Shown here: in pieces, positions 23,397 through 43,551 of the stretch
How the letters are laid out: every line of letters starts with the position of its first letter
How positions within the stretch are numbered: position 1 is the stretch's first letter
Origin: Gammaproteobacteria bacterium
GTDB lineage: Bacteria > Pseudomonadota > Gammaproteobacteria > Pseudomonadales > Azotimanducaceae
Length of the DNA: 64,000 bases
NCBI GenBank assembly: GCA_026707735.1
Contig: JAPOWH010000019.1
Span: 1 to 64,000, forward strand
Direction: 5' to 3'
Program-made: the position numbers and the translations under genes
Notes under the pieces: generated by a model
Seen by the model: only the letters and a program-made list of their open reading frames with translations
Database searches by the model: none
Told to the model about the DNA's origin: nothing

Positions 23397-26300
23397 ATGG
23401 CAACAACGATTCGACACCTAGCGTTCCTCGCAATTCTTGGCATTTGCATACAAGTGATGGGGCAAGAGGAAGACACTCAGCTTCAAGTTGTCCGTGTTAC
23501 TCCCTCTGGTGACGAAGTGCCCGTCACCAGAGGCGAAATCATCATCGACTTCAACAAGAACATGGTTGCATTCGGTCAAACAGACCAAGACCTGACCGAT
23601 GTGCCGGTAGAAATCAAACCTGAACTCGAATGCACCTGGCGATGGACCAGTGCCAATCAGCTGACATGTGTGCATGAAGCCCTGAGATACACGACTTCAT
23701 ACGTCATTTCGATTGGGACTTCATTGCAAGCCCTCGATGGCTCCATGCTCGATTCAACGCACGAAGTCTCATTCCGAACTGCTTCCTTAGGGGTGTTTGG
23801 CACAAACTCCCTCTGGCGAAGTCCTACACGCCCCATATTCGAAATCAGCTTCTCGCAGCCAATGGCCCTCGGTACGATTTTGGATAAGGTCCATATACGC
23901 GACCTGAAGACATCGGAATTGCATGAGGTCAAGGTCATGCATGCAGCTAGCTTGCCGAGGTGGAGCCAGATCACATCCACATTCTTTCAAAAGAACGAAG
24001 AGGGCGAGTGGAATCGGTCAAGCGATGCTGAGAGAGCAGACTTTTTGCATGCGCTTAGAGACGGGGGGATTGATCGTGGGAACTACGCTGAAGTAAAGCA
24101 AGAGTTTGCAACAAGAAGTTGGATGGTCGAACCGCTAGCTCCCCTGAAGCCCGATACCCCCTATGACCTAGAAGTCGCGTCCAACGCCAAATCAATTTTC
24201 GCGTCTGAGCCGACCACGCTGCCAATGCACATATCGCGATTCGAAGTCTATCCAGCTTTCGAATTTCTTGGTCTGGAGTGTCTAGACATCAAGGGGTCGT
24301 TCAAACAGCACTTAATCGACTCGTCGGACAACACCGGGACGCGTTTGACCGACTGCGATCCGGATCGAGGTATTACTTTGCTATTTACTGCTCCGGCAAA
24401 AGCCCATGACGTCAAGTACAGGTCTCTCATATCGCCCAAGCCCGACGATGACCGAAACTATGCCCGCGCTAGGTTCTACACGATGCAACAGGGGGTGCTG
24501 GCATACATTTCTCGATTTGAACTGCCAGGAGACAATCAAGACTTCGCGTCTAATGATGACCTGAGCAAGGTCAACATCGGGTATCAACTTACGGGAAACA
24601 CAACCTACGAATTGAAAGTGGGCGATGCACCGCTTTTTGACGTTTTTGCCAGATATTTGACAAGGCGTACAACCGTTGAATTTCGTACGGGTCCGTTGAA
24701 GCCAAGACTCAATTTCTTGTTTCCGTGGTTGGTCATGGGCGTTCAGTCCAACTTGGATGTTCCCGTCGATGTTGCCAATCTGAGTGATCTGCGCGTCAGG
24801 CTAGCCGCGAGAGCCGGATCCAATCAACGATGGTCCGTAAGCAGGAAACGGCAAAGGTTTGAAATTCCGCCCGACCAGATCGTTCCCGCTACTTTGGACT
24901 TCAAGAATTGGTTGCCGTCTAGAACTCTGCAGTTCGTGGCCGCCATTGAACCAATCGCAGATTCACAATATGGCGAAAATCCAACTACCACATGCATTTA
25001 TGGACAAGTCACCCCATATGACGTACAGGCTCGTATAGGGCACACCTCTTCCATCGCTTGGGTTACAGACCTCCAAACAGGTCAGGTTGTTCCGGACGCT
25101 TCAGTTTCTCTCGTGGAGATACGACAAGCTGGCGGTTCCCTTGTGGCGGAAGCTACCACAAACAAGAAGGGAATTGCCTCACTTCCCGGTAAATCGGTCT
25201 TTTCCGCGGGTGAGCGAGGGAGGAGTTGGCTAGTGCCATCTGATGTATTCGACGATGAGAATTGTCTAAATCCCTTCCCAGCTACGCACGCGTTGTACAT
25301 CGAAGGCCCAAAAGGCAATTCAACTCTGCCTCTTTCCCAAACACTTCTCACAAGAAGCGACTACGCAAGCTCCGTGCCGGTTCCTCACCTTACTGTGTGG
25401 GGGCATACGGCTCAAGGACTATATCGACCTGGCCAAGTTGTCCAATACAAGATTTTCGTACGGGAGCAAACCGACAAAGGATTGCGATCAGATGAGACAC
25501 GTCGCTTTCGGCTTGTCGTAACGCAAGGCTACGGCGAGCTAGTTCACCATGAGAACGCCATCGAACCAAACCAGTTTGGATCGTTTCACGGAGAATTCAC
25601 GATACCGAAATCGGTCAGAACAGACAGGAACTTGCGGTTCCTCGTAATGATCGACAAAGGAGAGAGCTTCTCTTCCATTTGGAACGCTGAGGACGATTCG
25701 CTGAATTATTCAGAGGTTGAATACTGGAAAGCGTTTGAGGTTGAAGTCTTCGATTTCGACCCGGCAACGATATATGTAGAAGTCTCTCTCGACGAGAACG
25801 AATATGAGCTCGGGGACACGCTGAATGCCAGTGGAAGAGCAGACCTCATATCAGGTGGACAATATTCCAATGCTCCGATCACAATCGAAACTCGCCTGAG
25901 ATCTAAAGGATTCGTATCACAACACCCTGAAACGAAGGAGTTTTCCTTCGTGTCAGCTTCCGACCAATACCACAACTGGACTTTAAAGGATTTTCAGACA
26001 GATAGCACCTCTACGGATAGCGAAGGCGTTTTCGACGCGTCTCTCTTGCTAGACATCGCTGACGTCGACTACGGTTCTTTGACGCTTTCTCTAGGCGTAC
26101 AAGAAGATAGTGGAAACATCATTTGGGAAAACACAAGAGCTACATACTTTGGCACAGACAGATTTGTCGGCCTTCGCCACATAGAAAAGCAAGCTCGAGT
26201 AGGTGAAACGGTAACGGTAGATACTGTTGTAGTGGACCAACAGGGCGAACCATTGAATGACTTACCGGTCAACCTCAGTTTCTTCCGGGTCTTATCGCAT

Positions 26301-29300
26301 TTCAACAATAACGAACTGCAAGAAAAATTGGTTCACACCTGTGAAATAGCCCCTGACCTCGCTTCTAGGTCTTGCTCCATGGCACCGTCTGAAGCGGGAC
26401 AGCTTCGCGTAGTAGCGACGATCAACACCGCGGATGGTCGCAACCAAGAGGCTATTCAATTTATCTACGTTCAGGGACGAGTTGTTGCTGACAAGCGTGA
26501 GCAATGGGACAACGTGCGCATAGCAAATGCAAGAGAGCTGAGGGATCGTTCATTCAATGTCGGCGAGTTTGCATCGCTAGTAGTTGAGCACTCTGTTCCG
26601 GGTTCTATGGCTCTAGTAACCGTTGAAAGACTTGGCATTCTTGACCATTGGGTGACCGAATTGGAAGGAACCCACGACGTCATCGATATACCCATACGAC
26701 AACACTACGCGCCTATCGTTAGAGCGACAGTTACAGTTACGACCACCAACTCGGTCACCAAGCCCAGAAGTTTCGTAGCTGCTGTCGACCAGGAGGCATT
26801 CCCTAATTCTTGGACGCGAACCGTTGATCTGCGGGTCAAGGATGCCACGCGATTGCTTGACTTGCAGATTACCACTGACAAGGAAGTGTACGCGCCGGGT
26901 GAAAAAGTGAAGGTTGAGATCGCTGTAAATCGCAGCTCATTTCAAGGCAATCAAGCAGCCACCGAATTGGCGGTTGCCGTGGTTGATCAAGGCGTGCTAG
27001 AAATGTCCCGAACAGGGATTGGGCATTACGACCCAGTCAAGGGACTATTGGAGGGCATGAACATCGATGTAGATGGCTACTGGCTGCTTTGGCAAGGTTT
27101 AAGCGCTGCGAATATGAGTCGTCTTGTGGCCGATTTTGATACGACCCCAAGATCAAACGAAGACCTAACTAGTCTATGGATGCCCAACCTGGAGACAAGT
27201 AGCGATGGCACAGCAAGCTTTGAGTTTGAAATTGGAGATCGCCTGACGGAATGGCGGATCATCGTTGTCGCTGCCTCCACCACCGAACATTTCGGATTGG
27301 GTCAAAAATCCATCAGAACAAACTTGGGAGTTGAGGTGCGGCCAGTTTTGCCGAACCAAGTTACCGATGGAGACATCTTCGATGCTACCTTCTCGGTACT
27401 GAATCGATCGGACACAAAGCGCAATGTCGATGTCACCATTGAGGCAGATGGCGACGGCACAGCATCTACGCGCACCGAATCCATTGCATTGGAACCATTT
27501 GAACGAAAGCTGGTGTCCGCAACGATTCAGGCACAATTAGGCCAATACGCAAAACCCTTAGTAGGTTCGATTCGGCTTATAGCCAAAGCTTCCTCCGGTA
27601 GCGATACCGATGCGCTGGTGCAGGAAGTTCCCGTGCGTCCGCACAAGCGCCGTTTTGTCAGTTCAATCTACGGCACATCGATCGATCGAGTGGTCGCTGA
27701 GCCAGTTGAAATCCCGGTGGACATTGCCGACGGAACCGGTTCGCTGGAAATCCAGGTCGCTCCCTCGCTGATCAATGCCGTGGACGACCGCGTGGCGCAG
27801 GTGCGCGACTATCCGTACCAATGCTGGGAGCAGCGTCTTAGCTCTGCGGTCGTAGCGGCGCATTTCTCCAAGTTGAGCGAGCGGATGAGCATCGATTGGG
27901 AGGACGCAAATCAATATATCCGGGATGTGCTGCAATCCGCTAGTGAATTTCAGTCTGCTAGTTCAGGCGGATTCGGCTACTGGAGCGGTGAATCCATTCA
28001 CCCAGATCTTTACCTATCGGCCTATACAGCTTTGGCGTTTCGATGGCTAGCGGATGCAGGCTTCGAGGTGCCACCAGTTGTCCTGCAGAGCCTGCTTGAG
28101 TACCTAGAAGACTACACCGTGTATCGGCTGCCCGACTACCTGAGCATTGACAACTCTGCGACGCCTTCGCTGAGACTGATGCTTGCAAACGCTCTTGTTC
28201 AACATGGAAAAGGGGATTTGCAATTGGTGGGCAAGCTCTACGAAGAGAATAAGAATCCCAATCTGTTTTCGGTTGCACAGACTCTTGAGGCGACCATATC
28301 CTTGGATGCGAAGAGCAACATGGCGGCGACTTTGGCAACGAGGCTGACGAACAGCATTGGTGTGACTGGCGATCGAGCGTTGATCCAGCACGGCGCGGTC
28401 AGCAGACGGAACTACATGCTTTCGAGCCAGTTGAAGACCACGTGCAGCGCCATCTCCTCCTTTGTCCGCGCCAGCGACCGAGGCGTGCCGCTGATCTCCC
28501 AGGAAAGGCTGGCGGAACTGGTCCGGGGCGTGATGTTCGAATGGAACCGACGGAAGTTCGGAGCCACGCCCCACGAGTCCTCGTTCTGCCTGAGCGCAGT
28601 CGTGGAGTACGCCGAGAGCATGGAGACCGTGGACGAGGACTTCAAGGTGGACGTGGAGCTGGTGATGGACGATCACTTGAGCCCGCCTCGACTCGAGACC
28701 AACGGATCGGCGCACTCGCTCGTCTACACGACTCCGCTGAAGCCCGACCACGTCGGGGCGCCCGCCGAGCTGCGGCTGAGCCAGACCGGCGACTCGAGGT
28801 TCTACTACAAGGCGACGCTTCGCTACGAGCCCGCCGAGGAGCAGTCCGACCGGGAGAACTTCGGGATCGACATCCGCAAGGCCTACTGGGTCAGGAGCGG
28901 AGATCAATGGGTCGAGCTGGACGACTCCCACGAGCTGAACAGGGGAGACGTGGTTCACGTGGGGCTCTATCTCGACATCCGCGACCAGCGCGACTTCGTG
29001 ATCGTCGACGATCCCGTGCCGGGATTCCTGCAGCCCATCAATCTACGCCTGGCAAAGACCAGTGTGCACGAGACACTTGTGTCATCAGTCCGCTCTTGGG
29101 GATTCTCAACCGATCGTTTGTTTGCAGGGGCGAATGTTCGAGGTGGGCGTCAGGCAAGCGAAGGTCCCGGCGAGCTTATACCAGCCGACTTGGAAGGGGA
29201 ATGGAGTGTTTTTGGTTATTCCCGGTGGGGTTTCTACAGTCGCCAGTTGCGCAACGACAGCGTCCGGTTCGCGAGCGACTTCCTGCGATCTGGCCGCTAT

Positions 29301-29438: not shown

Positions 29439-29496
29439 GTGGTCGCTGCCTTAGCACTCAATCGAATGTCGGACGACTGCTTGTGTAGCCGACCAG

Positions 29497-29511
29497 TTGT
29501 GCTACATTCAA
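29497..29511 (+). promoter_or_regulatory. Candidate extended -10 promoter of A2M copy 2
   Basis: TTGTGCTACATTCAA, with TGC-TACATT as an extended -10, matches the element before copy 1 in 14 of 15 positions and lies 53 bases before the TTG start at 29550. It lies in the 111-base gap between copies 1 and 2, so copy 2 may have its own promoter as well as read-through from copy 1. Confidence 0.4.
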
Positions 29512-29537
29512 AACCAGCCCAGATCTTGGTTTTTCTT

Positions 29538-29545
29538 GGGGGAGG
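29538..29545 (+). promoter_or_regulatory. Shine-Dalgarno that fixes the TTG start of A2M copy 2
   Basis: GGGGGAGG ends four bases before TTG at 29550. It is the only strong ribosome-binding site in the region, and it places the start directly at the signal peptide 'TFKLQLVFLLSLLLCGIHS'. The alternative GTG at 29439 abuts the previous stop, has no such site and would add 37 residues ahead of the signal peptide. Confidence 0.7.
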
Positions 29546-29549
29546 TCTG

Positions 29550-32500
29550 TTGACTTTCAAGCTTCAATTGGTGTTTTTGCTTTCGCTACTCCTTTGCGGA
29601 ATCCATTCTCTGGGGGATGAAGAAGACAAAAAACTTGAAGTAGTTGGCGTTACACCATTTGGCAACGAAGTGCCTGTCACTAGAGGCGAAGTCATCATCG
29701 AATTCAACAAGAGAATGGTTTCCCTTGGTCAGATTGACAAGGAGCTTTCTGATGATCCCGTGGAAATCAAACCGTCCCTGTGGTGCAAATGGCGTTGGAC
29801 GAGTCCAAAGCAACTGACTTGCACACATCGCGATTACTTGAGGGACACGACGACATACGTCATTTCAATAGGTACGTCATTTGAGTCTCTCGATGGCTCA
29901 ACGCTTGCCAATGACGTCGAACTTACGTTTCGGACTGCATCGCTGGGAGTCCATGGGACCTACGATACGTGGCGAAACCCAACCCAACCGATTTTCGATG
30001 TGACATTCACACAGCCCATGTCTCTGGATACCGTACTCAAACACTTGCAGATCAGAAACGTACAAAGTTCCGAGATACAGCAAATCAAGGTCGTAAACGG
30101 CCCAATCCCACGATATCCTTGGGAATCCAATCGTCGCTACTTCCGCCAAAACGAAGACGCTTCGTGGAGAACTGCCAGTCCGAATGAAGAAGAGGAGCTA
30201 CTTCAGCTTCTTGGCGATGGTGACAGCGACCAGGAGCGTCACAGGGCCGACATGCCTAAGATTGCGTCCAAGGAATGGACCGTTGAAGCGCTAAGTCCAC
30301 TGGAGGTGGGTGCTACTTACGATCTGGAAGTTGCACCGGGCGCAAAGTCTATATTCGCTTCCGAGCCCACAGCCGACACTTTGCGAGTTACTAGCGTCGA
30401 AGCATTTGGAGGCTTTAAATTCGTTGGCCTGGAATGTATCAATAAGAACGGGACCTTCGAGAAGCACCTTGTCAATAGCGACAAGAGTAAATCAAGACCG
30501 TTGCGCGACTGCGACCCCGATGCTGGAATCTCCCTGTTGTTTACATCGCCGGCAATTCAGAGTGATGCCCGCACCGGTGTTTCCATATCGCCTGAGCCCG
30601 AAGTTAATGGCAATTACGACGTGTACTTGGAAGCCAGATTTGATGCCTACTCATGGGCCGTTTGGCGACGACACGGATTGATTCGGATAGTTGGAACTGA
30701 AGAATTTTGGTCCCGAGGCACTTTTGACTTAGACGATAACCTCAGCAAGATACATTTTGGATACCAATTCGATGGAAATACCACCTACAAAATAGACATT
30801 GGAGCCGAAAAAATTCGCGATGCGTTTGGCCGCACGTTAGAAGCACCCATCGAGATTGAATTCCGCACTAGTGCGCTTAAACCAAGGCTACTCGTCGAAA
30901 GTCCAGTAGTAATTGGCCCACAAGTAAGTCCTGAAGTGCCGATTAAGGTAGCGAATCTTCGCGACTTGCGTGTTCAGGTTGCCAACCAGCTCCCTACCGA
31001 ATTTGGCTGGTTGGTGAAGAGCAATCGACATAGGCTTGCTACGGCCACGGATCAAGTCATTCCCATCAGATTGAATCTCAGAGATTGGCTAAGCGAAGCC
31101 AAAACTCCATTTGTAGCATTGGTAACTCCGTCGGCAATTCCTCGTTTCGGCGAGGATCCTAGCGCGAGATGCATTGTGGGACAGGCCACTCAATACAACG
31201 TATGGGCTCGAATAGGCTATACCTCTTCCCTAGTTTGGCTAACAGACCTTGTATCTGGCCAAGTGGTGCAAGATGTGCCTGTATCGCTAGTAGCCTCGCT
31301 GGACAATTCTCAGCTGCCAATCAATAAAGTACTGACGGACAGCGATGGCGTTGCAAACCTCCCTGGCCGAATTCAATTGCCACAGGTTGTCAAGAAAGAT
31401 CGGCGTTGGGAATTGCCTGACGAGTTCAAGGACTTGAATTGCTTGAATTACTTCGATGCAGATCATTTCCTGAGAATCGACGAACCCGATGGATCTACTA
31501 TTGTTCCATTGAACAAATTCACTCGGGACCGAGATTGGGACTTCGGCCACATTTCACGAGATCTACATCTAGCGGTATGGGGGCACACAGCTCAAGGAAT
31601 CTACCGACCCGAACAACTTGTGGAATACAAAATATTCGTGCGTGAACTCTCAGCTGAAGGATTGCAATCGAACAAGAATCGCCTCTATCACCTCATTGCA
31701 TTTCAGCAAGATGAATTGGTTTTTCACCAAAACGGCATCGAACTGAATGATGTTGGTGCGTTTCACGGTGAGTTCCAGATCCCGAAGACCCTTGTGGGAA
31801 CATTGAGCTTCTTCGTTGTGGTCGACAACGGAGAGGACCTTGGGACTTTATGGGATGCCGACTATGGGTGGCTGCGTTTTGAGCACGAGTCGTGGCATGC
31901 ATTTGACGTCGAAGTCTTGGATTTCGACCCGGCGACGATTCTTGTAACGAGCAAACTTGACAAAGACGAATACATGCATGGCGAAGATCTAGAAATTGAG
32001 AGCCAATCAAATCTCCTTTCAGGTGGCCCCTATACAAACGCTCCTGTAGTAATCGAAGCTTCACTACGAGCCAAGAGTTTCGTTTCCCAACACCCGAAAA
32101 CGAATAAGTTTCGTTTTTGGTCTGAACACGGGCGGCGCGAGCATTGGGAGTTCAACGATTTTCAAACTCCTAGCAGCACAACTGACACTAGAGGCGAGTT
32201 CTCAGCATCTCTAAATTTAGACTCCAGATCTGTCGTATACGGTGAATTGACTGTTTCGTTGGGTGTACAGGAAGATAGTGGAGAAGTCATTTGGGATTTT
32301 GAGCGCGCCAAGTATCGTAGTGCGAACAGGTTCGTGGGCGTTTACCACGACGAAACTTCTGCTCACGTGGGCGAGGCAGTTTCCGTGGAAGCTGTTGTGG
32401 TCGCGCCAAACGGCCAGCCAAAGAATGATCTACCCATCACGCTTGAGTTTTATCGGGTCCTCTACCAAGGAAGCTTCAACTCGGGAACCAAAACGTTGGT

Positions 32501-35500
32501 CCATGTCTGTGAACTAACCGTGAATAACAGCAGGAAGTCTTGCACTATGATTCCCGAGACATCTGGCTTGTACCATGCGGTCGCAACGATCCAAACCGCG
32601 GGGAATGTTAATCAGGAGGCGGTCACCGCAATATACGTTAGCGGTCAAACACATGCGATTGAGGCCAATGAGCGCGATTACATGCGCATTGCAAACAGGG
32701 ACGAGTTGGCGATGCGAGAGTTTGTCGCTGGAGAAGTTGCCTCAATTGCGATCGAACACTCATTTCCAGGATCGCAAGCACTACTTGCGATCGAGCAGCT
32801 TGGCATATTGGAACACAAGGTAGTTGAGTTGACGGGAAACCTCCACGTTGTTGATATTCCCATATCAAACGCTTTTGCACCCTCTGTCCGCGTCAGTGTA
32901 ACAGTAGCGACTGTCGATTCACAAGAAAAACCACAGGTATTGGTGGCAGCTCAAAACCTAGAAAAATTCCCCAACTCCTGGGCTCGTTCCGTACGCCTCG
33001 ATGTGCGAAACTCATTAAAGCCCCTCGACTTGGAAATTACTACGGATAAGAATGTCTACGAGCCTGGAGACTTAGTTGAGGTAGACGTTGCGGTACGCGA
33101 TGGCTCCGTATCTCCAATGTCGTCACTGACAGAATTGTCTGTGGCCGTTGTAGACAGAGGCGTATTGGAGATGTCACGGACGGGAATCAAGCATTATGAC
33201 CCGATTCAAGGGTTGCTGCAAGAAACGAATATCGACGTTCAAGGACATTGGCTACTGTCAGACCAATGGCGTTACAGCTATTTGTCTGTGGCCGACTCTG
33301 AGGATTTTGATGAACCGACTCCACGGGCGAACCAGGATCTTACAAGCTTTTGGTTGCCGAATGTTGAAGTTGATAACGACGGAACGGCAAGCTTCGAGTT
33401 TGAGGTAGGCGACAGGCTGACCGAATGGCGGATAGTTGTCGTGGCCGCAACCGCGACGGATAGGTTTGGCTTAGGCGTGAAGTCCATCAAGACCAATCTG
33501 GGCATTGAAGTGCAACCAGTACTACCAAATCAGGTAACTGATCGGGATGTGTTCGACGCTAGCTTTTCCGTACTAAATCGCGGAGATAGCACCCGGAAAG
33601 TTACGGTAGAAGTCGTGGCCGAAGGCCACGTTGAGCCGTATTTTCACACTGAATCCTTAGTGCTGGCTCCATTTGAAAGACGACTAGTTTCTCCGAGAAC
33701 TCAAGCAAAATTTAACAGAAATAGAAACGTGTCGACAGGAACTATCAGGCTTCTCGCCACGGCTTCCTCCGGTAGCGATACCGATGCGCTGGTGCAGGAT
33801 GTTCCCGTGCATCCGCGCAAGCGGCATTTTGTCAGTTCGATCTACGGCACATCGATCGATCAAATGGTCGCTGAGCCAGTTGAATTCCCCGCGGACATTG
33901 CCGACGGAACCGGTTCGCTGGAAATACAAATCGTTCCCTCGCTGATCAATGCCCTGGAAGACCGCGTGGCGCAGGTGCGCGACTATCCCTACCAATGCTG
34001 GGAGCAACGTCTTAGCTCTGCGGTCGTTGCGGCGCAGTTCTCCAAGTTGAGCAAGCGGATGAGCATCGATTGGGAGGACGCAAGTCAATATATCCAGGAC
34101 GTGCTGCAATCCGCAATTGAGTTTCAGTCTGAATCGGGCGCGTTCGGCTATTGGAATGGACAAGAAGCGAACACAGATCTCTACCTTTCGGCATATACGG
34201 CTCTGGCATTCTCGTGGTTGTCAGATGCGGGCTACCACATACCAGTGACCGTGTTGGAGAAATTGCTTGACTTCCTCGCCGACCAGGGCATGTATAGGCT
34301 TCCAGACCATATCAGATGGGACAAAACGGCCGACTCCTCATTGAGGTTAATGGTGGCAAATGCGTTGGCGCAGCACCAAAAGGGAAGTTGGGGTCTTGTG
34401 TCTAGAATATACACCGAGAGCGCCGATTCCAGCCTCTTTGCGATGGCGCAGTCTCTCGAAGCCGCCATCGAGCTGGATCAGCCGCCGGATGTACTCACTC
34501 CTCTTGCAACGAGGCTGACGAACAGCATTGGTGTGACTGGCGATCGAGCGTTGATCCAGCACGGCGCGGTCAGCAGACGGAACTACATGCTTTCGAGCCA
34601 GTTGAAGACCACGTGCAGCGCCATCTCCTCCTTTGTCCGCGCCAGCGACCGAGGCGTGCCGCTGATCTCCCAGGAAAGGCTGGCGGAACTGGTCCGGGGC
34701 GTGATGTTCGAATGGAACCGACGGAAGTTCGGAGCCACGCCCCACGAGTCCTCGTTCTGCCTGAGCGCAGTCGTGGAGTACGCCGAGAGCATGGAGACCG
34801 TGGACGAGGACTTCAAGGTGGACGTGGAGCTGGTGATGGACGATCACTTGAGCCCGCCTCGACTCGAGACCAACGGATCGGCGCACTCGCTCGTCTACAC
34901 GACTCCGCTGAAGCCCGACCACGTCGGGGCGCCCGCCGAGCTGCGGCTGAGCCAGACCGGCGACTCGAGGTTCTACTACAAGGCGACGCTTCGCTACGAG
35001 CCCGCCGAGGAGCAGTCCGACCGGGAGAACTTCGGGATCGACATCCGCAAGGCCTACTGGGTCAGGAGCGGAGATCAATGGGTCGAGCTGGACGACTCCC
35101 ACGAGCTGAACAGGGGAGACGTGGTTCACGTGGGGCTCTATCTCGACATCCGCGACCAGCGCGACTTCGTGATCGTCGACGATCCCGTGCCGGGATTCCT
35201 GCAGCCCATCAATCTACGCCTGGCAAAGACCAATGCGCGCGAGATCCAGGCGACAAATGACAGATACGGCAAGCTTGTCCCAGCTGAGATAGCGGGCGAT
35301 TGGAACGTTTTGGGCTCATCCCGGTGGGGCTTCTACAATCGCCAGTTGCGCAATGACAGCGTCCGGTTCGCGAGCGACTTCCTGCCATCGGGACGCTATC
35401 GGCTGTATTGGTCGGGACGCGTGATCTCGACGGGCGAGTTCGTGGCGCGGCCTGCTCACGCCGAGGCGATGTACTCGCCCGAGGTATACGGCAACTCAAG

Positions 35501-35531
35501 ACGTCAGAGGATAGCAACAAACGCGGATTAG
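29550..35531 (+). CDS. Bacterial alpha-2-macroglobulin, copy 2 (CWEQ thioester)
   Basis: A 1993-residue exported paralogue of copy 1 with the same domain order: signal peptide, Ig-like domain ('VTPFGNEVPVTRGEVIIEFNK'), macroglobulin domains with 'WGHTAQGIYRPEQ', a divergent bait-like stretch, the A2M core ('LTSFWLPNVEVDNDG'), a thioester domain with 'YPYQCWEQRLS' (Cys1483, Gln1486) and an MG10-like C-terminus ending in 'MYSPEVYGNSRRQRI'. The first two thirds are clearly diverged from copy 1, whereas 34506-35232 is identical to it. The TTG start is chosen from the strong GGGGGAGG; the frame is open back to a GTG at 29439. The protein should be a periplasmic thioester-dependent protease trap; the target protease is unknown. 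Confidence 0.93.
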   Translation: MTFKLQLVFLLSLLLCGIHSLGDEEDKKLEVVGVTPFGNEVPVTRGEVIIEFNKRMVSLGQIDKELSDDPVEIKPSLWCKWRWTSPKQLTCTHRDYLRDTTTYVISIGTSFESLDGSTLANDVELTFRTASLGVHGTYDTWRNPTQPIFDVTFTQPMSLDTVLKHLQIRNVQSSEIQQIKVVNGPIPRYPWESNRRYFRQNEDASWRTASPNEEEELLQLLGDGDSDQERHRADMPKIASKEWTVEALSPLEVGATYDLEVAPGAKSIFASEPTADTLRVTSVEAFGGFKFVGLECINKNGTFEKHLVNSDKSKSRPLRDCDPDAGISLLFTSPAIQSDARTGVSISPEPEVNGNYDVYLEARFDAYSWAVWRRHGLIRIVGTEEFWSRGTFDLDDNLSKIHFGYQFDGNTTYKIDIGAEKIRDAFGRTLEAPIEIEFRTSALKPRLLVESPVVIGPQVSPEVPIKVANLRDLRVQVANQLPTEFGWLVKSNRHRLATATDQVIPIRLNLRDWLSEAKTPFVALVTPSAIPRFGEDPSARCIVGQATQYNVWARIGYTSSLVWLTDLVSGQVVQDVPVSLVASLDNSQLPINKVLTDSDGVANLPGRIQLPQVVKKDRRWELPDEFKDLNCLNYFDADHFLRIDEPDGSTIVPLNKFTRDRDWDFGHISRDLHLAVWGHTAQGIYRPEQLVEYKIFVRELSAEGLQSNKNRLYHLIAFQQDELVFHQNGIELNDVGAFHGEFQIPKTLVGTLSFFVVVDNGEDLGTLWDADYGWLRFEHESWHAFDVEVLDFDPATILVTSKLDKDEYMHGEDLEIESQSNLLSGGPYTNAPVVIEASLRAKSFVSQHPKTNKFRFWSEHGRREHWEFNDFQTPSSTTDTRGEFSASLNLDSRSVVYGELTVSLGVQEDSGEVIWDFERAKYRSANRFVGVYHDETSAHVGEAVSVEAVVVAPNGQPKNDLPITLEFYRVLYQGSFNSGTKTLVHVCELTVNNSRKSCTMIPETSGLYHAVATIQTAGNVNQEAVTAIYVSGQTHAIEANERDYMRIANRDELAMREFVAGEVASIAIEHSFPGSQALLAIEQLGILEHKVVELTGNLHVVDIPISNAFAPSVRVSVTVATVDSQEKPQVLVAAQNLEKFPNSWARSVRLDVRNSLKPLDLEITTDKNVYEPGDLVEVDVAVRDGSVSPMSSLTELSVAVVDRGVLEMSRTGIKHYDPIQGLLQETNIDVQGHWLLSDQWRYSYLSVADSEDFDEPTPRANQDLTSFWLPNVEVDNDGTASFEFEVGDRLTEWRIVVVAATATDRFGLGVKSIKTNLGIEVQPVLPNQVTDRDVFDASFSVLNRGDSTRKVTVEVVAEGHVEPYFHTESLVLAPFERRLVSPRTQAKFNRNRNVSTGTIRLLATASSGSDTDALVQDVPVHPRKRHFVSSIYGTSIDQMVAEPVEFPADIADGTGSLEIQIVPSLINALEDRVAQVRDYPYQCWEQRLSSAVVAAQFSKLSKRMSIDWEDASQYIQDVLQSAIEFQSESGAFGYWNGQEANTDLYLSAYTALAFSWLSDAGYHIPVTVLEKLLDFLADQGMYRLPDHIRWDKTADSSLRLMVANALAQHQKGSWGLVSRIYTESADSSLFAMAQSLEAAIELDQPPDVLTPLATRLTNSIGVTGDRALIQHGAVSRRNYMLSSQLKTTCSAISSFVRASDRGVPLISQERLAELVRGVMFEWNRRKFGATPHESSFCLSAVVEYAESMETVDEDFKVDVELVMDDHLSPPRLETNGSAHSLVYTTPLKPDHVGAPAELRLSQTGDSRFYYKATLRYEPAEEQSDRENFGIDIRKAYWVRSGDQWVELDDSHELNRGDVVHVGLYLDIRDQRDFVIVDDPVPGFLQPINLRLAKTNAREIQATNDRYGKLVPAEIAGDWNVLGSSRWGFYNRQLRNDSVRFASDFLPSGRYRLYWSGRVISTGEFVARPAHAEAMYSPEVYGNSRRQRIATNAD
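34506..35232 (+). repeat. 727-bp identical segment, copy in A2M gene 2
   Basis: Second copy of the segment at 28335-29061, identical by eye over 727 bases, with strongly G/C-ending codons. The first mismatch after it is at 35233 (A against G at 29062). Copy 3 has no matching GC3-rich sequence at the equivalent place, so homogenisation involved only copies 1 and 2. Confidence 0.85.
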
Positions 35532-35609
35532 GTATTGAGAGTGCGCTCTGAATCTGTTTGCAGGATCAATTGGAGTGGATCTTTGGTATTCCAAGACGCG
35601 TGCGGCTTC

Positions 35610-36083
35610 ATGATTCGAGTCTGGAGACCATTGACGCTTTGCTGCGTCTTGTTGTACGCGTTTATCGGGTCAACTGACCAAGAAGAATCTACTCCGCTCG
35701 AGGTTGTCAAGGTTACCCCTTTGGGTGGAGGTGTTTCAACGACCATGGGGCGAATCACCATTGAATTCAATAAACCCATGTTGGCACTTGGGGAACGGTT
35801 TCAGGAATTTAACGAGATTCCAATTGAGATAACTCCTAGCGTTGCTTGTACCTGGCGGGCGTTCAGTATGTACGAGTTTACATGTCTCCTTGACGACGAC
35901 CTCCTACCTGAGACAACCTATACGATAAAAGTCTTGGGAACCGCAGAGTCCTTGGATGGGTCAGTGCTCACCAACGGTCATGAATCCGTCTTCACAACAG
36001 TTCTCCTTGCGGTCGAACAAGACTGGATGTTTTGGAAAAGCCTACCAAAACGGTCGTTCGACTCTGGTTTTCTCACCCCGTAA
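35610..36083 (+). CDS. Alpha-2-macroglobulin copy 3, N-terminal fragment before frameshift
   Basis: This frame holds the signal peptide (MIRVWRPLTLCCVLLYAFIGS) and the Ig-like domain ('VTPLGGGVSTTMGRITIEFNK') of the third A2M paralogue. It then runs out of homology at about 36041 and stops at 36083. Comparison with copies 1 and 2 (W-R-S-P-T-R-P) shows that homology jumps to the -1 frame after 'FWKS', as expected if one C was lost in AAAAGCC(C)TACC. The ATG at 35610 gives the signal peptide directly; a TTG at 35535 is also in frame. The rest of the protein is the next entry. Joined, they give about 1995 residues, the same size as copies 1 and 2. Confidence 0.8.
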   Translation: MIRVWRPLTLCCVLLYAFIGSTDQEESTPLEVVKVTPLGGGVSTTMGRITIEFNKPMLALGERFQEFNEIPIEITPSVACTWRAFSMYEFTCLLDDDLLPETTYTIKVLGTAESLDGSVLTNGHESVFTTVLLAVEQDWMFWKSLPKRSFDSGFLTP

Positions 36084-39000
36084 CACTAAGCACGGTCGTT
36101 GAGACCGTGCGAATACGCAGTCATGATGGCTTAGAGGAAATTAGTGTTCGCGCAACACATTCACCAGAACTCTATTCACTTAGTGGAGACTTCCATTCAC
36201 TAACCGAAGACGGCAAGTGGAATCGCATTCCGAGAGACTCGGTGGATGCCTTTGCTGCCGCACTTGCGGATGGGTCAGCATGGAACAAAGTGCGAACGCG
36301 CACTGGGATTGCCGGAAGGCAATGGTATGTGGAACCAACTCGTGAACTTCAAAGCAATTCCCGCTATAGCTTGCGTTTGAGCGAAGGTGCCAAGTCAATC
36401 TACGCTACCGAAGGGACTAAAGAAGCAGTAGATTTCTGGTCGTTTGAGACTTTTGATGAGTTTAAGTTCATTGGATTGGAATGCACCAACACCAAGGGTG
36501 AGATTGAGCAATCTCTCACAACGGACAGTCAGTACAACGTTAAGACACTGGACGATTGCGACCCTGATAAAGCAGTGGTTCTGCTGGTCAATGCTCCATT
36601 ACCTAGAACAACAAGAACTAGAATTCCCAACGTTTCGCCAGAGCCCGAACCCAGCCGAAACTACCCCACAGAAGAGCAGATTACTTCTCCACCAAGAGAA
36701 AGGATTTTCAAATACTCTGATCCCCGATCCGGTTGGCATACTGATCGAGATGATGATTTCTTCCCGCTCGATCTTCCCTTCAAGTTTCGTGGAAAGACCG
36801 AATACACGATCACCGCCAGAGCGCAGCAAATGTCTGACGTATTCGGGAGGGCCTTGACTTTGCCAATCCCCCTGAAGTTTCAAACGGGACACATGACACC
36901 ACGCTTGGGAGGTATGGCGCCCATTGCCATTTTTGGATTGGATTCCCCAATGGAAATCCCTCTCAAGTTCGCAAATCTCAAAAACCTAAAAATTGAGCTG
37001 GGAATTGATCTTTTTGATCAGGAATATCGAACCACTAAGCAAGAGATCGTAGATTTCGATGGGCCTTTCGAGCAGGTAGTGGACGTCAACCTAGACATAC
37101 GAGATTGGCTACAGGGGAATACAGGACAATTCCTCGCAAAAATTGAGCCAATTGCCTACTCCAATATTGGCGAGAATCCTTCCGAGACTTGCCTATATGG
37201 TCAACTTACACCCTACAACGTACACGCAAGAATCGGACAGACATCGTCAATCGCCTGGGTGACCGAACTTGAAACGGGAGAAGTCGTCTCAGACGCAACT
37301 GTTGAACTTGTTCAACTTGTACAAAATCAAAGAAAAGTGATTTTCGCATCTGAAACGAATAGCGATGGGATTGTCAAACTGCCGGGAAAGACTTTGTTGC
37401 CCGGCTTTCCTTATATCGATCGAGGTTACGGAGGCCACTTTATCTCAAGTTACATTGGCGAGAGGTACACGTGCAACGGAGCATACAACGCAAAGTATGC
37501 CCTTAAGATAGCTGGACCCAATGGGAATGCGATACTTCCGCTAGAACAGCCCTTTGTTAAATCCGATGGCCGCACAGTTCTGCACGGTGAACCACATCTT
37601 TCGATATGGGGACACACGGCCCAAGGAATCTACAGTCCGGGCGATGATCTGCAGTACAAAATCTACGTGCGCAGGCAAACTGACGGCGGTATAGGCAAAA
37701 TCGACAACAGCGGCAAATTCCTGCTAGTTGTCCTTGGTTCGCGCGGCGGACTTGTTCATTTCAGAAACGCCATCGTGCTCAACGAATTTGGCGCTTTCGA
37801 CGGCGAGTTTCAAGTGCCTCAGTCTGCCTTGGGTTCGCTGAGGTTCTTGATTCTAGTAGATGAAGGAGAAACCGAAGTCGAAATCCAACAAATGCTCCCT
37901 CGACTAGCGGAAGCCAAGTACGGCAAGCTTCGTGAACGGTACGATTCCCATTGGGTTGCTTTGACAGTCGATGTTGTCGAATTCGTACCCGCGACCATTC
38001 GACTAGAAAGCAGTCTGGATGCCGACTCCTACTCAAACGGAGACTTCGTTACAGTGCGAGGAAGAACGGAGCTGCTCTCCGGCGGATCCTTCAGTGATGC
38101 TCCAGTTGAAGTTCGATTACATTTCGTTCCCAAGAACTTCGTACCGAGAACCCCTGCAACCGATGGTTTCCAATTCGCATTCTCTCCAACGGGCAGGGCG
38201 CCATCTGTGGACGGCAACTCGGGGAATAACGGCGCATTCCAGCTATCAAGGCGCATTACATTCGACAGCTTCTTCTATGGGACTTTAAAGGTGGCCACAG
38301 GCGTACAGAGTGATCGAGGTGATTGGGTCTGGGACTACAAGCAGGTGGACTTTAGGACTACCGACCGTTTTGTTGGCATTCGGCTAGACCGACAACCAAA
38401 GCGTGTGGGGAGTCTATTGACGGTTGACACGGTTGTAGCGGACCCAACGGGTAAACCAACGAATGACTTGCCAATAACCATCGAGATCGCTCGAAGGGAA
38501 TCCACAAATTCCGGCTACTGGGGCGATTGGAAGCAAGTCCACTTTTGCCGTATTGGAAGTAGCGATCGCGTCAAGTCATGTTCGTATACGCCAGATGTCG
38601 ATGGTTACTATCGCGCGACGGCGCGAAGTGCCGGCGACAACGAGCTGCCTCAAAGCGTAGAGCAAGAATTTTGGGTTCGCGGACAGGCCATTTCTACCCC
38701 TAGGGACCGCGGGAGCTATTTAAGATTCGTAGACCAATACGCCGCCTACAAGCCAGAATTTACGGTTGGAGACGTTGCAGCACTCGCCATCGAGCATTCA
38801 ATCCCAAATACCAAAGCTCTGGTCACCATCGAACGATTGGGGGTCCTCGATCAGTGGGTTGTCGAACTGCAAGAAAACGGTCAATTCATTGATATTCCAA
38901 TGAAAAAGGAGTATTCCCCTCGCGTTCGCGTATCAATGGTTGCCATGGTTCCAGCGTCAATGAACAAATCTAGGTCAAACGCTGCTACTAGAGTTGTACA

Positions 39001-41596
39001 GACTCATGCCAGCACCGAAAAAGCCAGCATGTTTTTGACTGTCAACGATCCAAAACCCTTGCTCGACATCAAGATTTCAACCGACAAGGAGGTTTACGAG
39101 CCGGGCGAATTGGTGACAGTTTCCGTTAGTGTGAACAATGAGGATGGCACGAGAATTGCGTCGCCTCACGAACTAGCTGTCGCTGTCGTGGATCAGGGTG
39201 TTCTCGAAGTCTCCAAATCTGGAATCGGACATTTTGACCCGCTGCAGGGCTTTTCCAATACATTTGAATTCGCTGTTCAAGGGTTTGGGTTGCTATCAAG
39301 AGGCTATGGAACCATCTATTGGTCATTCTCTTCCGCTGCCGGTGGTGGTGCCATTCAAAGACCGAGCGAGAGTCCACGAGAGAACACTGAGCTGATGAGT
39401 CAATGGATCCCAAGCATACACACCAATGCAAATGGAGAAGCAAGCTTCGAGTTTGAAGCTGGAGACCGTCTGACCCAGTGGAATATCATCGTGGTTGCGG
39501 CAGAATCCGCGGATCTGATCGGTTACGGCCACAAATCCATAAGGACAAACCTGGACTTGGAAATCCACCCGATTTTGCCAAATCAGGTTACGGAATCCGA
39601 TGTATTCAATGCAAGCTTCTTTGTTCTAAACCGAACTGATTCTGAACGAACAGTGAACGTAGCCGTAGAAGTAACTGGCGATGTCGAACCAGCCTCGATT
39701 CAAGATTCGATCAGGCTAAAGAGCTACGAACGGAAGATTGTCGCGTTACCTCAACATGTGCTACTCGACAAAGATCTTTCGTACCCAAAGGATGGATCGA
39801 TCAAGCTGTATGCGGCCGTGACATCCGGCGAGCTTGCCGATGCGGTTGTGCACACTCTGCCCTTAAAGCCAGATAGGAGAATCGCCTTTCGTTCCATTTA
39901 CGGTACTTCAAGGAAACCCAAAGTGGCCGAACCCGTTGACTTTCCACGGAATATCAAGAGGGGATCGGGGTTGCTGGATGTAGCCGTAACTTCATCTCTC
40001 GTTCGATCTCTAGATAGCAAACTGTCACAGATCAAGGACTACCCCTACAGTTGCTGGGAGCATCAACTAAGCAAGGCTTCAATTGCCGCGCAGTCCCAAA
40101 ACGTGCAGGGAAACATCGATTTTGACTGGCCTCAAGCGGAAGAATACATAGAACAGGTGTTGAGTTTGGCCGCTGACTATCAGGTTAGGTCTGGAGGATT
40201 TGTGTATTGGGATGATGGTAGGGACCATGCCTACCCTTATCTCTCGGCATACACTGCTCAAGTCTTAAATTGGTTGAGCGACATTGGACACGAAGTGCCA
40301 GAAGAGGTCGTTGCATCGCTGGACCAATATCTAGAGGAACAACTCGAGGAAGAACCATCCAATCTACGTGAGACTCCGTTCCTTATGGCGTCTTCGCTCC
40401 GAATGATGATTGCCAACGCCCTAATACAACGTGGCAGAGGAGATGCTGAGCTTGTTGAACGCATCTACGGAGAGAATGAGAATCTGGATCCGTTCGCACT
40501 GACGCAAGGGCTTCAAGCTGCACTTGCTGCCGAGGCACCCAGAACGCTATTGGACCAATTAAGCGCAAGGCTGGAAAACAGCATTGCAGTCTCTGGAGAC
40601 AAAGCGCTGGTCCAGCACGATGTTGTACGCAATGGCAATATCCTGCACTCGAGCATGTTGAAGACGACTTGCAGTGCAATCACCGCATATGTCCAGGCGC
40701 GTTCCAAAAACATTCCTCTCATTTCTGATCGGAAACTTGCTGAGCTAGTCCGCGGCGCCGTGTATGAGTGGAACAAGCCGAAACCCAGAGCAATTCCGCA
40801 CCGGTCTGCCTACTGTCTACACGCTGTGGCTGCGTACTTGGCGAACATGGAGCCGGAGGCAGCAGAATTGGACATTTCAGTAAAGTTGGCGTTGGGTGGA
40901 CTTGAACACGACATTCCTGTCTTGACACCGGAAGCGGATGCTTTCCCGCCGGATGTCGCAACTTTTTCAACAGTGCTTGAGCCCAAACATCTTGGTGAGG
41001 CTGGCGAACTATTACTGCGTCAAGATGATGAATCCCGAATTTACTACAAGGCTACCCTGCAATACGAGCCGCTCGACGCTGGACGAAATGCAGAAAACCA
41101 TGGAATCGACATCACCAAGAGCTATTGGATAAAGTCTAGAGATTCGTGGCAGGAAATTGACGACGCCACTGAACTAAGCCGAGGGGACTTGGTGCGCGTA
41201 GGCCTTAAAGTCGACGTACGGGACCCCCTCGACTTCGTGATAGTGGACGACCCTGTGCCGGGCGCTCTAGAACCCATCGATCCCCGATTGGGTTCAACCA
41301 ACATCGACGAGGTGGCTGGAGAGTTTTGGTTCTACGACGTACTACAGGAATTTGGGAATGACATTTGGAACACATGGGGATTCTTGCGACGAGGTTTCTA
41401 TAGACGCGAATTGAGGCATGACTCCGTCAAGTTCGTAAGTGACTTTCTGGATTCGGGGCAGCATCGAATGCAGTGGACTGGCCGGGTGATTGCTACCGGA
41501 GATTTCTTGGCTCGGCCTGCGCATGCCGAATCGATGTACGCTCCAGATATCTATGGCAAATCTAAAACTCAAAGATTGCGGATCGCGATTGACTAG
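36032..41596 (+). CDS. Alpha-2-macroglobulin copy 3, main fragment (CWEH, thioester lost)
   Basis: This carries all of copy 3 downstream of the frameshift. True homology starts at about 36041 with 'PTKTVVRLWFSHPVTL', equivalent to 'PTRPIFEISFSQPMAL' in copy 1. It contains the macroglobulin domains with 'WGHTAQGIYSPGD', a distinct bait-like stretch rich in Gly, Ser and Ala, the A2M core ('LMSQWIPSIHTNANG') and the MG10-like C-terminus. At the thioester the sequence is 'YPYSCWEHQLS': the Gln that forms the thioester with Cys is replaced by His (CAT at 40061-40063). A covalent thioester cannot form, so if made this protein would be a non-covalent trap. The long intact frame suggests recent breakage, a sequencing error, or continued selection. 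Confidence 0.85.
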   Translation: MEKPTKTVVRLWFSHPVTLSTVVETVRIRSHDGLEEISVRATHSPELYSLSGDFHSLTEDGKWNRIPRDSVDAFAAALADGSAWNKVRTRTGIAGRQWYVEPTRELQSNSRYSLRLSEGAKSIYATEGTKEAVDFWSFETFDEFKFIGLECTNTKGEIEQSLTTDSQYNVKTLDDCDPDKAVVLLVNAPLPRTTRTRIPNVSPEPEPSRNYPTEEQITSPPRERIFKYSDPRSGWHTDRDDDFFPLDLPFKFRGKTEYTITARAQQMSDVFGRALTLPIPLKFQTGHMTPRLGGMAPIAIFGLDSPMEIPLKFANLKNLKIELGIDLFDQEYRTTKQEIVDFDGPFEQVVDVNLDIRDWLQGNTGQFLAKIEPIAYSNIGENPSETCLYGQLTPYNVHARIGQTSSIAWVTELETGEVVSDATVELVQLVQNQRKVIFASETNSDGIVKLPGKTLLPGFPYIDRGYGGHFISSYIGERYTCNGAYNAKYALKIAGPNGNAILPLEQPFVKSDGRTVLHGEPHLSIWGHTAQGIYSPGDDLQYKIYVRRQTDGGIGKIDNSGKFLLVVLGSRGGLVHFRNAIVLNEFGAFDGEFQVPQSALGSLRFLILVDEGETEVEIQQMLPRLAEAKYGKLRERYDSHWVALTVDVVEFVPATIRLESSLDADSYSNGDFVTVRGRTELLSGGSFSDAPVEVRLHFVPKNFVPRTPATDGFQFAFSPTGRAPSVDGNSGNNGAFQLSRRITFDSFFYGTLKVATGVQSDRGDWVWDYKQVDFRTTDRFVGIRLDRQPKRVGSLLTVDTVVADPTGKPTNDLPITIEIARRESTNSGYWGDWKQVHFCRIGSSDRVKSCSYTPDVDGYYRATARSAGDNELPQSVEQEFWVRGQAISTPRDRGSYLRFVDQYAAYKPEFTVGDVAALAIEHSIPNTKALVTIERLGVLDQWVVELQENGQFIDIPMKKEYSPRVRVSMVAMVPASMNKSRSNAATRVVQTHASTEKASMFLTVNDPKPLLDIKISTDKEVYEPGELVTVSVSVNNEDGTRIASPHELAVAVVDQGVLEVSKSGIGHFDPLQGFSNTFEFAVQGFGLLSRGYGTIYWSFSSAAGGGAIQRPSESPRENTELMSQWIPSIHTNANGEASFEFEAGDRLTQWNIIVVAAESADLIGYGHKSIRTNLDLEIHPILPNQVTESDVFNASFFVLNRTDSERTVNVAVEVTGDVEPASIQDSIRLKSYERKIVALPQHVLLDKDLSYPKDGSIKLYAAVTSGELADAVVHTLPLKPDRRIAFRSIYGTSRKPKVAEPVDFPRNIKRGSGLLDVAVTSSLVRSLDSKLSQIKDYPYSCWEHQLSKASIAAQSQNVQGNIDFDWPQAEEYIEQVLSLAADYQVRSGGFVYWDDGRDHAYPYLSAYTAQVLNWLSDIGHEVPEEVVASLDQYLEEQLEEEPSNLRETPFLMASSLRMMIANALIQRGRGDAELVERIYGENENLDPFALTQGLQAALAAEAPRTLLDQLSARLENSIAVSGDKALVQHDVVRNGNILHSSMLKTTCSAITAYVQARSKNIPLISDRKLAELVRGAVYEWNKPKPRAIPHRSAYCLHAVAAYLANMEPEAAELDISVKLALGGLEHDIPVLTPEADAFPPDVATFSTVLEPKHLGEAGELLLRQDDESRIYYKATLQYEPLDAGRNAENHGIDITKSYWIKSRDSWQEIDDATELSRGDLVRVGLKVDVRDPLDFVIVDDPVPGALEPIDPRLGSTNIDEVAGEFWFYDVLQEFGNDIWNTWGFLRRGFYRRELRHDSVKFVSDFLDSGQHRMQWTGRVIATGDFLARPAHAESMYAPDIYGKSKTQRLRIAID

Positions 41597-43285: not shown

Positions 43286-43551
43286 GAAGTTCGACGGCAA
43301 CCTCACGAGAAAGAGTAGGTTTGACAGACTCGGTGAAGCGTGAGCATCTACAGGCATTCAAGCCTAGGTTCAAAACCTTGGGATCTTTACTACTGTGAAA
43401 CAATTGTTGAGCAAGCGCTCTAATGAGTAGGCGTTAAAGAACCTTTCAGGAATGGCCGAAATACGTGAACGTCATCGAGGTGGTGTGTCAGACGAACTGA
43501 CGTCAACGAATCTACAGGGAATATTGCACAAATTGCTTGAGGTGGGCATTC

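What the first reader, a model, noticed from the sequence alone, without database searches (positions are those of the whole stretch)
23397..41596. Tandem triplicate array of divergent bacterial alpha-2-macroglobulins
Three consecutive co-oriented genes of about 2000 codons share one layout: signal peptide, Ig-like domain, WGHTAQG(L/I)Y macroglobulin domain, A2M core, thioester domain and MG10-like C-terminus. Bacterial A2Ms are usually single genes, often next to pbpC, which is absent here. Three paralogues in 18 kb suggests a multi-specific periplasmic protease-trap system.
Basis: partly seen in the sequence, partly recalled or inferred. Interest (0 to 1): 0.75.

Follow-up and report, generated by a model that had tools for sequence, protein, structure and literature searches.

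The report
Bacterial array of diversified protease traps
A bacterium, probably from a marine sponge, carries three macroglobulin genes (proteins thought to trap attacking proteases) side by side; related species carry similar arrays in which the protease-baiting loop varies strongly and some copies have lost the chemical hook that normally locks the protease in place.

Summary
The array is real: three co-oriented bacterial alpha-2-macroglobulin (A2M) genes, confirmed by Pfam, profile comparison and predicted fold. Corrections: copy 3 is split between two frames near 36.0 kb and has CWEH instead of the CxEQ thioester; copies 1 and 2 share an exact 727-bp tract. Tandem A2Ms occur in 10 of 18 genomes of the genus, one clade on rpoB. 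In a phylum draw 184 of 397 genomes have A2M; three have three hits, only G000 shows them side by side. Two findings go further. Bait-loop identity is far below flanks and whole protein in 13 of 13 array pairs compared (15-65%), but at or above the whole protein in two non-array pairs (87%, 100%). Seven of 28 readable array copies lack the thioester, one by in-frame loss of the whole thioester domain, against 0 of 15 non-array copies. Best reading: a lineage-specific, birth-and-death array of periplasmic protease traps, uncoupled from PBP1c, mixing covalent and non-covalent forms with diversified baits. Trapping is untested; positive selection is not shown.

The parts
23397..29438 (+). A2M copy 1: Sec-type signal peptide without a lipobox-like motif, Big_5 Ig-like domain, MG domains, bait-region domain, A2M core, thioester domain, bMG10
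29550..35531 (+). A2M copy 2, same layout; frame open from 29439, start TTG 29550 inferred from GGGGGAGG just upstream and from the signal-peptide-like stretch that follows
35610..36083 (+). A2M copy 3, 5' piece (signal peptide and Big_5); frame ends at a stop at 36081-36083
35984..41596 (+). A2M copy 3, 3' piece in another frame (tool ORF 36032-41596), holding MG2, A2M_BRD, A2M and bMG10
27810..27833 (+). copy 1 thioester block YPYQCWEQ (intact CxEQ)
33984..34007 (+). copy 2 thioester block YPYQCWEQ (intact CxEQ)
40040..40063 (+). copy 3 YPYSCWEH: thioester Gln replaced by His
   Evidence: same motif in G003_C51
27090..27149 (+). copy 1 bait-loop core (residues 1232-1251, between ..YWLL and R1252), inside the lowest-confidence stretch of the predicted structure (model residues 163-217 = 1202-1256); assignment by position
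28335..29061 (+). exact 727-bp tract shared with 34506-35232 (late thioester domain to the start of bMG10)
34506..35232 (+). exact 727-bp tract shared with 28335-29061

Best explanation
The locus is an operon-like tandem array of periplasmic bacterial A2Ms that descend from a single type I A2M of the kind that sits beside a PBP1c-like gene in relatives. Shown here: three paralogues in line; no lipobox-like motif in copies 1 and 2; no PBP1c above cut-off in the genome; tandem A2Ms in a clade of 10 genomes, partly as positional families; decayed copies, a sequence tract shared between copies, and a mosaic copy; variable bait loops; repeated loss of the thioester. Inferred: a protease that reaches the periplasm cuts a bait loop, the molecule closes on it, and thioester copies (1 and 2) bind it covalently while thioester-less copies (the copy-3 lineage) hold it by conformation alone, as reported for MagD. 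Several baits in one cell would widen the range of proteases caught. In this assembly copy 3 is frame-broken, so only copies 1 and 2 would act.
For: Family and fold: Pfam domains above cut-off; profile match to five A2Ms of relatives over 1744 columns, E 1.1e-89; Foldseek best hits Salmonella A2M 4u48, E 5.3e-47 (C-terminal half of copy 1) and E. coli A2M 5a42, E 8.0e-25 (N-terminal half). YPY and ExMY pocket residues in all three copies. Tandem A2Ms in 10 of 18 genus genomes, one rpoB clade 100/100. Bait identity 0.15-0.65, below both flanks and the whole protein, in 13 of 13 array pairs; 0.87 against 0.85 (whole) and 1.00 against 0.77 in two non-array pairs. KGAxxGGDGG at the bait in 7 of 15 non-array rows and in fragment L098, in 0 of 45 array rows. 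Thioester absent in 7 of 28 readable array copies and 0 of 15 non-array rows. Two thioester-less pairs under purifying selection, dN/dS 0.21-0.33. A thioester-less A2M, MagD, traps protease non-covalently (PMC5764988, that Results section read).
Against: No biochemistry; target proteases unknown. Bait dN/dS stays below 1, so relaxed constraint could explain the variation. The N-terminal MG region also diverges fast (copies 1 and 2 are 40% identical over 129-660). The pairs share sequences and the copies share descent; Fisher's test on thioester loss gives 0.037 one-sided, 0.077 two-sided, without correction for descent. Of nine array genomes with readable copies, four (G005, G007, G011, G012) show only CxEQ. 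The PBP1c-linked copies of G008 and G009 also lack KGAxxGGDGG. TED_complement did not pass its cut-off; ECAM's RDDR motif is not kept as such, only RND/RHD-like variants. The promoter and terminator scan gave no more sites than shuffles, so the operon rests on gaps of 111 and 78 bp. Both models have modest pTM (0.51, 0.47).
Confidence: 0.62

Rival explanations
1. A decaying, functionally redundant array: tandem duplicates formed by chance, with bait and thioester variation reflecting relaxed constraint after the link to PBP1c was lost.
For: Copy 3 is frame-broken; A2M copies in G005, G009 and G011 are split into several frames and G008_C1_5578 is truncated; bait dN/dS exceeds the flanks but stays below 1.
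Against: Where synonymous sites are not saturated, unbroken copies have dN/dS about 0.16-0.26; positional orthologues persist across species; arrays persist across the whole rpoB clade; the loss of the thioester domain in G008_C1_9681 keeps the frame and bMG10.
Confidence: 0.22
2. The array members are structural or adhesive envelope proteins built of Ig-like and macroglobulin domains, with no protease-trap role; the thioester, where kept, would bind them covalently to a surface or another protein.
For: The N-terminal half is predicted as mostly beta strands; no lipobox-like motif in copies 1 and 2; some array copies lack the thioester or the whole thioester domain.
Against: Bait-loop position, YPY.CxEQ and ExMY of proven traps are kept in copies 1 and 2, and the loop that varies most among the segments compared is the bait.
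Confidence: 0.12
3. Assembly or binning artefact: strain variants joined into a false tandem array, with the copy-3 frame break a sequencing error.
For: A 727-bp exact repeat lies in the array; the G003 copies sit on short contigs or at contig ends.
Against: G007 shows three A2Ms in the same order on a 1.02-Mb contig, and G002 and G012 hold 4 and 3 on single contigs; the copies are too different to be strain variants. The frame break alone may still be an error.
Confidence: 0.04

Closest known systems
Type I bacterial A2M (E. coli YfhM/ECAM, Salmonella SaA2M)
   Same: Fold family and order of MG2, bait-region, A2M core and C-terminal MG domains; CxEQ in copies 1 and 2; YPY and ExMY pocket residues
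   Different: About 2000 residues against 1653 for ECAM (PMC3328433, passages); N-terminal Big_5 domain; CWEQ; no lipobox-like motif; no PBP1c gene above cut-off; tandem copies; variable bait
Type II bacterial A2M (P. aeruginosa MagD, E. coli YfaS)
   Same: Copy 3 and six other array copies lack the CxEQ thioester; MagD, too, has no lipobox and holds protease non-covalently (PMC5764988)
   Different: Not in a mag-type operon; arises inside an array of type I descent by point changes or loss of the thioester domain, with intact thioester copies next door
Animal thioester-containing protein and complement families (insect TEPs, C3/C5)
   Same: Recalled, not tested: paralogue expansion in which some members, such as C5, lose the thioester
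   Different: Bacterial, presumably periplasmic, in one operon-like array; a resemblance of pattern, not of descent

Membership tests
Type I bacterial A2M | MG, bait-region, A2M core and C-terminal MG domains | tested here: met
   All three copies pass Pfam cut-offs for MG2, A2M_BRD, A2M and bMG10; fold hits for copy 1
Type I bacterial A2M | CxEQ thioester motif, copies 1 and 2 | tested here: met
   CWEQ in both
Type I bacterial A2M | CxEQ thioester motif, copy 3 | tested here: not met
   CWEH
Type I bacterial A2M | gene beside pbpC (frequent, not universal) | tested here: not met
   No TIGR02073 match over cut-off in G000, best E 6.7e-53; PBP1c-like genes beside A2M in relatives, also below cut-off, reach 1e-127 to 1e-133; neighbours are other families
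Type I bacterial A2M | lipobox / inner-membrane anchor (as in ECAM) | tested here: not met
   Pattern scan of copies 1 and 2; the 5' piece of copy 3 was not in the scan
Type I bacterial A2M | bait cleavage and covalent protease trapping | not testable with these tools
   needs purified protein
Type II bacterial A2M (MagD/YfaS) | no CxEQ motif | tested here: met
   Copy 3 only (CWEH); copies 1 and 2 have CWEQ
Type II bacterial A2M (MagD/YfaS) | six-gene mag-type operon | tested here: not met
   No further A2M-type gene besides the array; flanking genes hit unrelated metabolic families, two (43537-44577, 45550-47100) hit none. Mag partner families were not searched by name

The most novel reading that the evidence does not exclude
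One bacterial clade has evolved its own counterpart of the animal thioester-protein repertoire: a recombining, birth-and-death operon of protease traps whose bait loops diversify as specificity modules, while individual copies shift from covalent to non-covalent trapping by losing the Cys, the Gln or the entire thioester domain. Together the copies would form a combinatorial defence of the periplasm against host (probably sponge) or rival proteases.
Probability: 0.3. Interest if true: 0.78.

Novelty: new variant of a known kind. Interest (0 to 1): 0.58.

Why it matters
Bacterial A2Ms are studied mainly as single genes whose natural target proteases remain unclear. An array in which the bait varies strongly, with non-array relatives as a conserved comparison, makes bait specificity directly testable. 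Paralogues without a thioester, and one without the thioester domain, are natural experiments on what the thioester is for. In my searches (I saw titles and starts of abstracts of the papers listed) I saw no report of tandem bacterial A2M arrays; the library holds only open-licence papers and the listings were capped, so this is weak evidence of absence.

Tried and rejected
Dedicated anchor partner: a repeat protein with an N-terminal hydrophobic segment (45550-47100) has homologues near A2M loci in other genomes, which suggested a MagB-like anchor. Rejected for G000: in a tree of 33 sequences (8 array-side copies, 25 others sampled from far more; the two partial PBP1c-side copies left out) the array-side copies of G000, G007 and the other subclade are not orthologous, and the family has dozens of candidate copies per genome, so adjacency may be chance. 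Within the other subclade the neighbour is conserved.

General homogenisation by gene conversion: rejected as a rule. Tracts of at least 88% identity appear in 1 G000 pair and 2 G011 pairs out of 34 within-genome pairs. An earlier BLASTN attempt at the same question missed even the G000 tract because its identity filter was applied to whole alignments.

First bait guess, residues 1108-1150, was dropped; the loop at 1232-1251 fits position and model confidence.

Positive selection at the bait: not shown. Anti-phage defence: copies 1 and 2 and the 3' piece of copy 3 have no PADLOC hit. RNA elements: no Rfam hit at gathering threshold in 16000-48000.

Host: not settled. Reading COS as Coscinoderma is my inference from the sponge list in PMC8163846 (passages; the word macroglobulin does not occur in its main text). 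PMC12203066 (passages) matches sponge rRNA reads to a similarly named Nitrospira SB0677. PMC6697440 (passages) reports an A2M-like repeat protein in a sponge thaumarchaeote.

Full report
What is there. Window 23397-41596 holds three co-oriented A2M genes. Copies 1 and 2 are open frames of 2013 and 2030 codons. The true start of copy 2 is probably TTG 29550, which opens a signal-peptide-like stretch and follows GGGGGAGG; this leaves a gap of 111 bp after copy 1. Copy 3 would start at ATG 35610, 78 bp after copy 2. Pfam finds Big_5, MG2, A2M_BRD, A2M and bMG10 above cut-off in copies 1 and 2, and bMG3 below cut-off. In copy 3, Big_5 passes in the 5' piece and MG2, A2M_BRD, A2M and bMG10 pass in the 3' piece. 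NCBIfam gives one insignificant hit (E 0.062) among the four pieces. phmmer with copy 2 against PDB sequences gives only a weak match to TEP1 over the thioester region (E 0.0016).

Copy 3 is broken. Its first frame stops at 36083; a second frame, open from 35984, runs to 41596. The first piece is 71% identical over 160 residues to a G003 protein that reads on without a break. I cannot tell a real mutation from a sequence error without reads. Its thioester block is YPYSCWEH; G003_C51 has the same change in an unbroken frame.

Is it an A2M? A profile of 24 relatives aligns with five A2Ms of other genera over 1744 columns, probability 100, E 1.1e-89; four of the five lie near a PBP1c gene that passes TIGR02073. 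AlphaFold models of the two halves of copy 1 (mean pLDDT 76.5 and 77.6, pTM 0.51 and 0.47) have as best PDB hits Salmonella A2M (E 5.3e-47, TM 0.38/0.26) and E. coli A2M (E 8.0e-25, TM 0.15/0.12). The low TM-scores mean that this supports family and local fold, not overall geometry; a second aligner was not available. The YPY and ExMY residues that shield the thioester in ECAM and SaA2M (PMC4498604, Introduction and Results read) are in all three copies; the RDDR motif of that paper is present only in altered form.

How unusual is the array? Of 397 genomes drawn from the phylum (G000 included), 184 have a PF00207 match: by my count of the table 174 have one, 7 have two and 3 have three (G000, G499, G525). 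The three G525 places and the two printed G499 places lie on different contigs; the list of places was cut. A draw of 195 genomes of the order with PF17973 agrees: 52 have a match, and only G000 has more than one over the cut-off. Among 146 relatives 28 have a PF00207 match. In the genus, 10 of 18 genomes show tandem A2Ms: G000, G007 and G012 with three, G002 with four, G008 on two contigs, G009 with two plus remains, G011 with three (two of them in broken frames), G005 with a frame-split copy plus remains, G003 with a full copy followed by one cut by the contig end, and G014, where PF00207 finds nothing but the tail of one copy is followed by the head of the next at a contig end. G013 has one copy beside a PBP1c-like gene; seven genomes show none, one of them only 78% complete.

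Species relations. On rpoB the ten array genomes form one clade (100/100) and the seven A2M-less genomes another (99/98); with midpoint rooting, genomes of other genera fall between them, so the 'genus' is not tight. Nine of the 21 RpoB rows are partial (661-1041 residues), some cut by the local alignment.

Descent of the copies. In the A2M tree of 31 full-length proteins copies 1, 2 and 3 each group with their counterpart in G007, and copies 1 and 3 with G003, so this array predates those species. The arrays of the other subclade form their own group with the PBP1c-linked copies of G008 and G009 as sister. The copies therefore multiplied separately in the two subclades or were homogenised within them. 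PBP1c-like genes lie next to the A2M in G013, G115, G045, G088, G008_C27 and G009_C36, all six below the TIGR02073 cut-off at 425-444 bits; this suggests the ancestral state. The best match in G000 is far weaker (E 6.7e-53 against 1e-127 to 1e-133).

Recombination. Copies 1 and 2 share an exact 727-bp tract although the genes are 64% identical in nucleotides over aligned codons, and a second stretch around the thioester is 91% identical. Copy 3 against G003_C51 is a mosaic: synonymous difference 0.44-0.61 over about the first 1200 codons but 0.08-0.09 beyond, where rpoB of the same two genomes stands at 0.81. A mis-binned G003 contig could explain the low overall distance, not the step inside the gene.

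The bait. The stretch before the A2M core holds a loop between ..YWLL and R1252 in copy 1. It falls in the lowest-confidence part of the model and where the bait of known A2Ms lies (recalled; PMC4498604 places the bait within MG8). My pattern could delimit it in 25 of the 60 A2M rows, and one of the 25 (G009_C14_9521) looks wrongly delimited and was not used. Of the 14 pairs I chose, 13 are array pairs (3 within G000, 10 between species): bait identity is 0.15-0.65, below both flanks (0.52-0.92) and the whole protein (0.36-0.83) in all 13. In the PBP1c-linked pair of G008 and G009 the bait is 0.87, a little below its flanks (0.95, 0.90) and above the whole (0.85). In the two Lac Pavin genomes it is 1.00 against 0.77 for the whole. 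KGAxxGGDGG lies there in 7 of 15 non-array rows (G013, G045, G115, both Lac Pavin, SRR3933267, Thiomargarita) and in fragment L098; the 8 without it are the PBP1c-linked G008 and G009 copies, which have GGGG, and six more distant A2Ms. None of 45 array rows has it, but many of these are fragments that may not cover the bait. Against a stronger claim: for G008_C1_14668 and G012_13954 dN/dS is 0.38 at the bait, 0.12 in the flanks and 0.19 elsewhere; for copy 3 and G003_C51 it is 0.17 at the bait and 0.26 elsewhere; for the PBP1c-linked pair 0.12 and 0.13. So the loop changes faster, partly by length, without proof of positive selection.

The thioester. Of 60 A2M rows found, 48 were long enough to align: 33 array and 15 non-array. 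Five array rows do not reach the site. Of the other 28, 21 have CxEQ and 7 do not: CWEH in G000 copy 3 and G003_C51; SWEQ in G003_C22, G002_5911 and G008_C25_3697; LWEQ in G009_C14_9521; and G008_C1_9681, where the part equivalent to about residues 1455-1867 of its G009 relative is missing while frame and bMG10 are kept. All 15 non-array rows have CxEQ. On the tree the losses fall in at least three separate places, not counting G003_C22, which was too short for it. Two thioester-less pairs have dN/dS 0.21-0.33, so they are constrained. Such proteins can work: MagD holds its protease non-covalently, whereas SaA2M with its thioester inactivated could not (PMC5764988, Introduction, trapping section and Discussion read).

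Location. In a pattern scan (not a signal-peptide predictor) copies 1 and 2 have signal-peptide-like starts without a lipobox-like motif; among array copies of at least 1100 residues the only such motif within the hydrophobic start is in G011_12511. ECAM has a lipobox (PMC3328433, passages). I expect soluble periplasmic proteins.

Judgement. Unproven are secretion, co-transcription, bait cleavage, trapping and the identity of the proteases.

Noticed in passing
window 45550-47100 (-): Repeat protein with an N-terminal hydrophobic segment and WA..DP..AL repeats, no significant Pfam or NCBIfam hit. The ten array genomes have 40-124 first-look candidates of this family, the other eight genus members 1-14; at most 8 per genome were scored. 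Confounded with the rpoB clade.
   Followed up: partly
L073:9681-14534 (-), genome G008: A2M frame with the thioester domain missing in frame and the C-terminal MG domain kept.
   Followed up: partly
rpoB loci L180-L184 and L186 (G010, G015, G001, G017, G016, G006): RpoB open frames of 1472-1473 residues against 1364-1390 in the nine array genomes with an unbroken frame; the match in G016, like that in G013, contains a stop. Possibly a lineage-specific insertion.
   Followed up: no
window 13749-14792 (-): Ankyrin-repeat protein, a class often noted in sponge symbionts (recalled).
   Followed up: no
window 7996-8925, 41741-43285, 58613-59452: Three PhyH-family genes in 64 kb, one directly downstream of the array.
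   Followed up: no
window 3018-6593 and 6565-7872 (-): Overlapping pair: AAA_27 ATPase and calcineurin-like phosphoesterase, resembling a YhaN/YhaO- or SbcCD-type pair (names recalled); the ATPase has weak PADLOC hits only.
   Followed up: no
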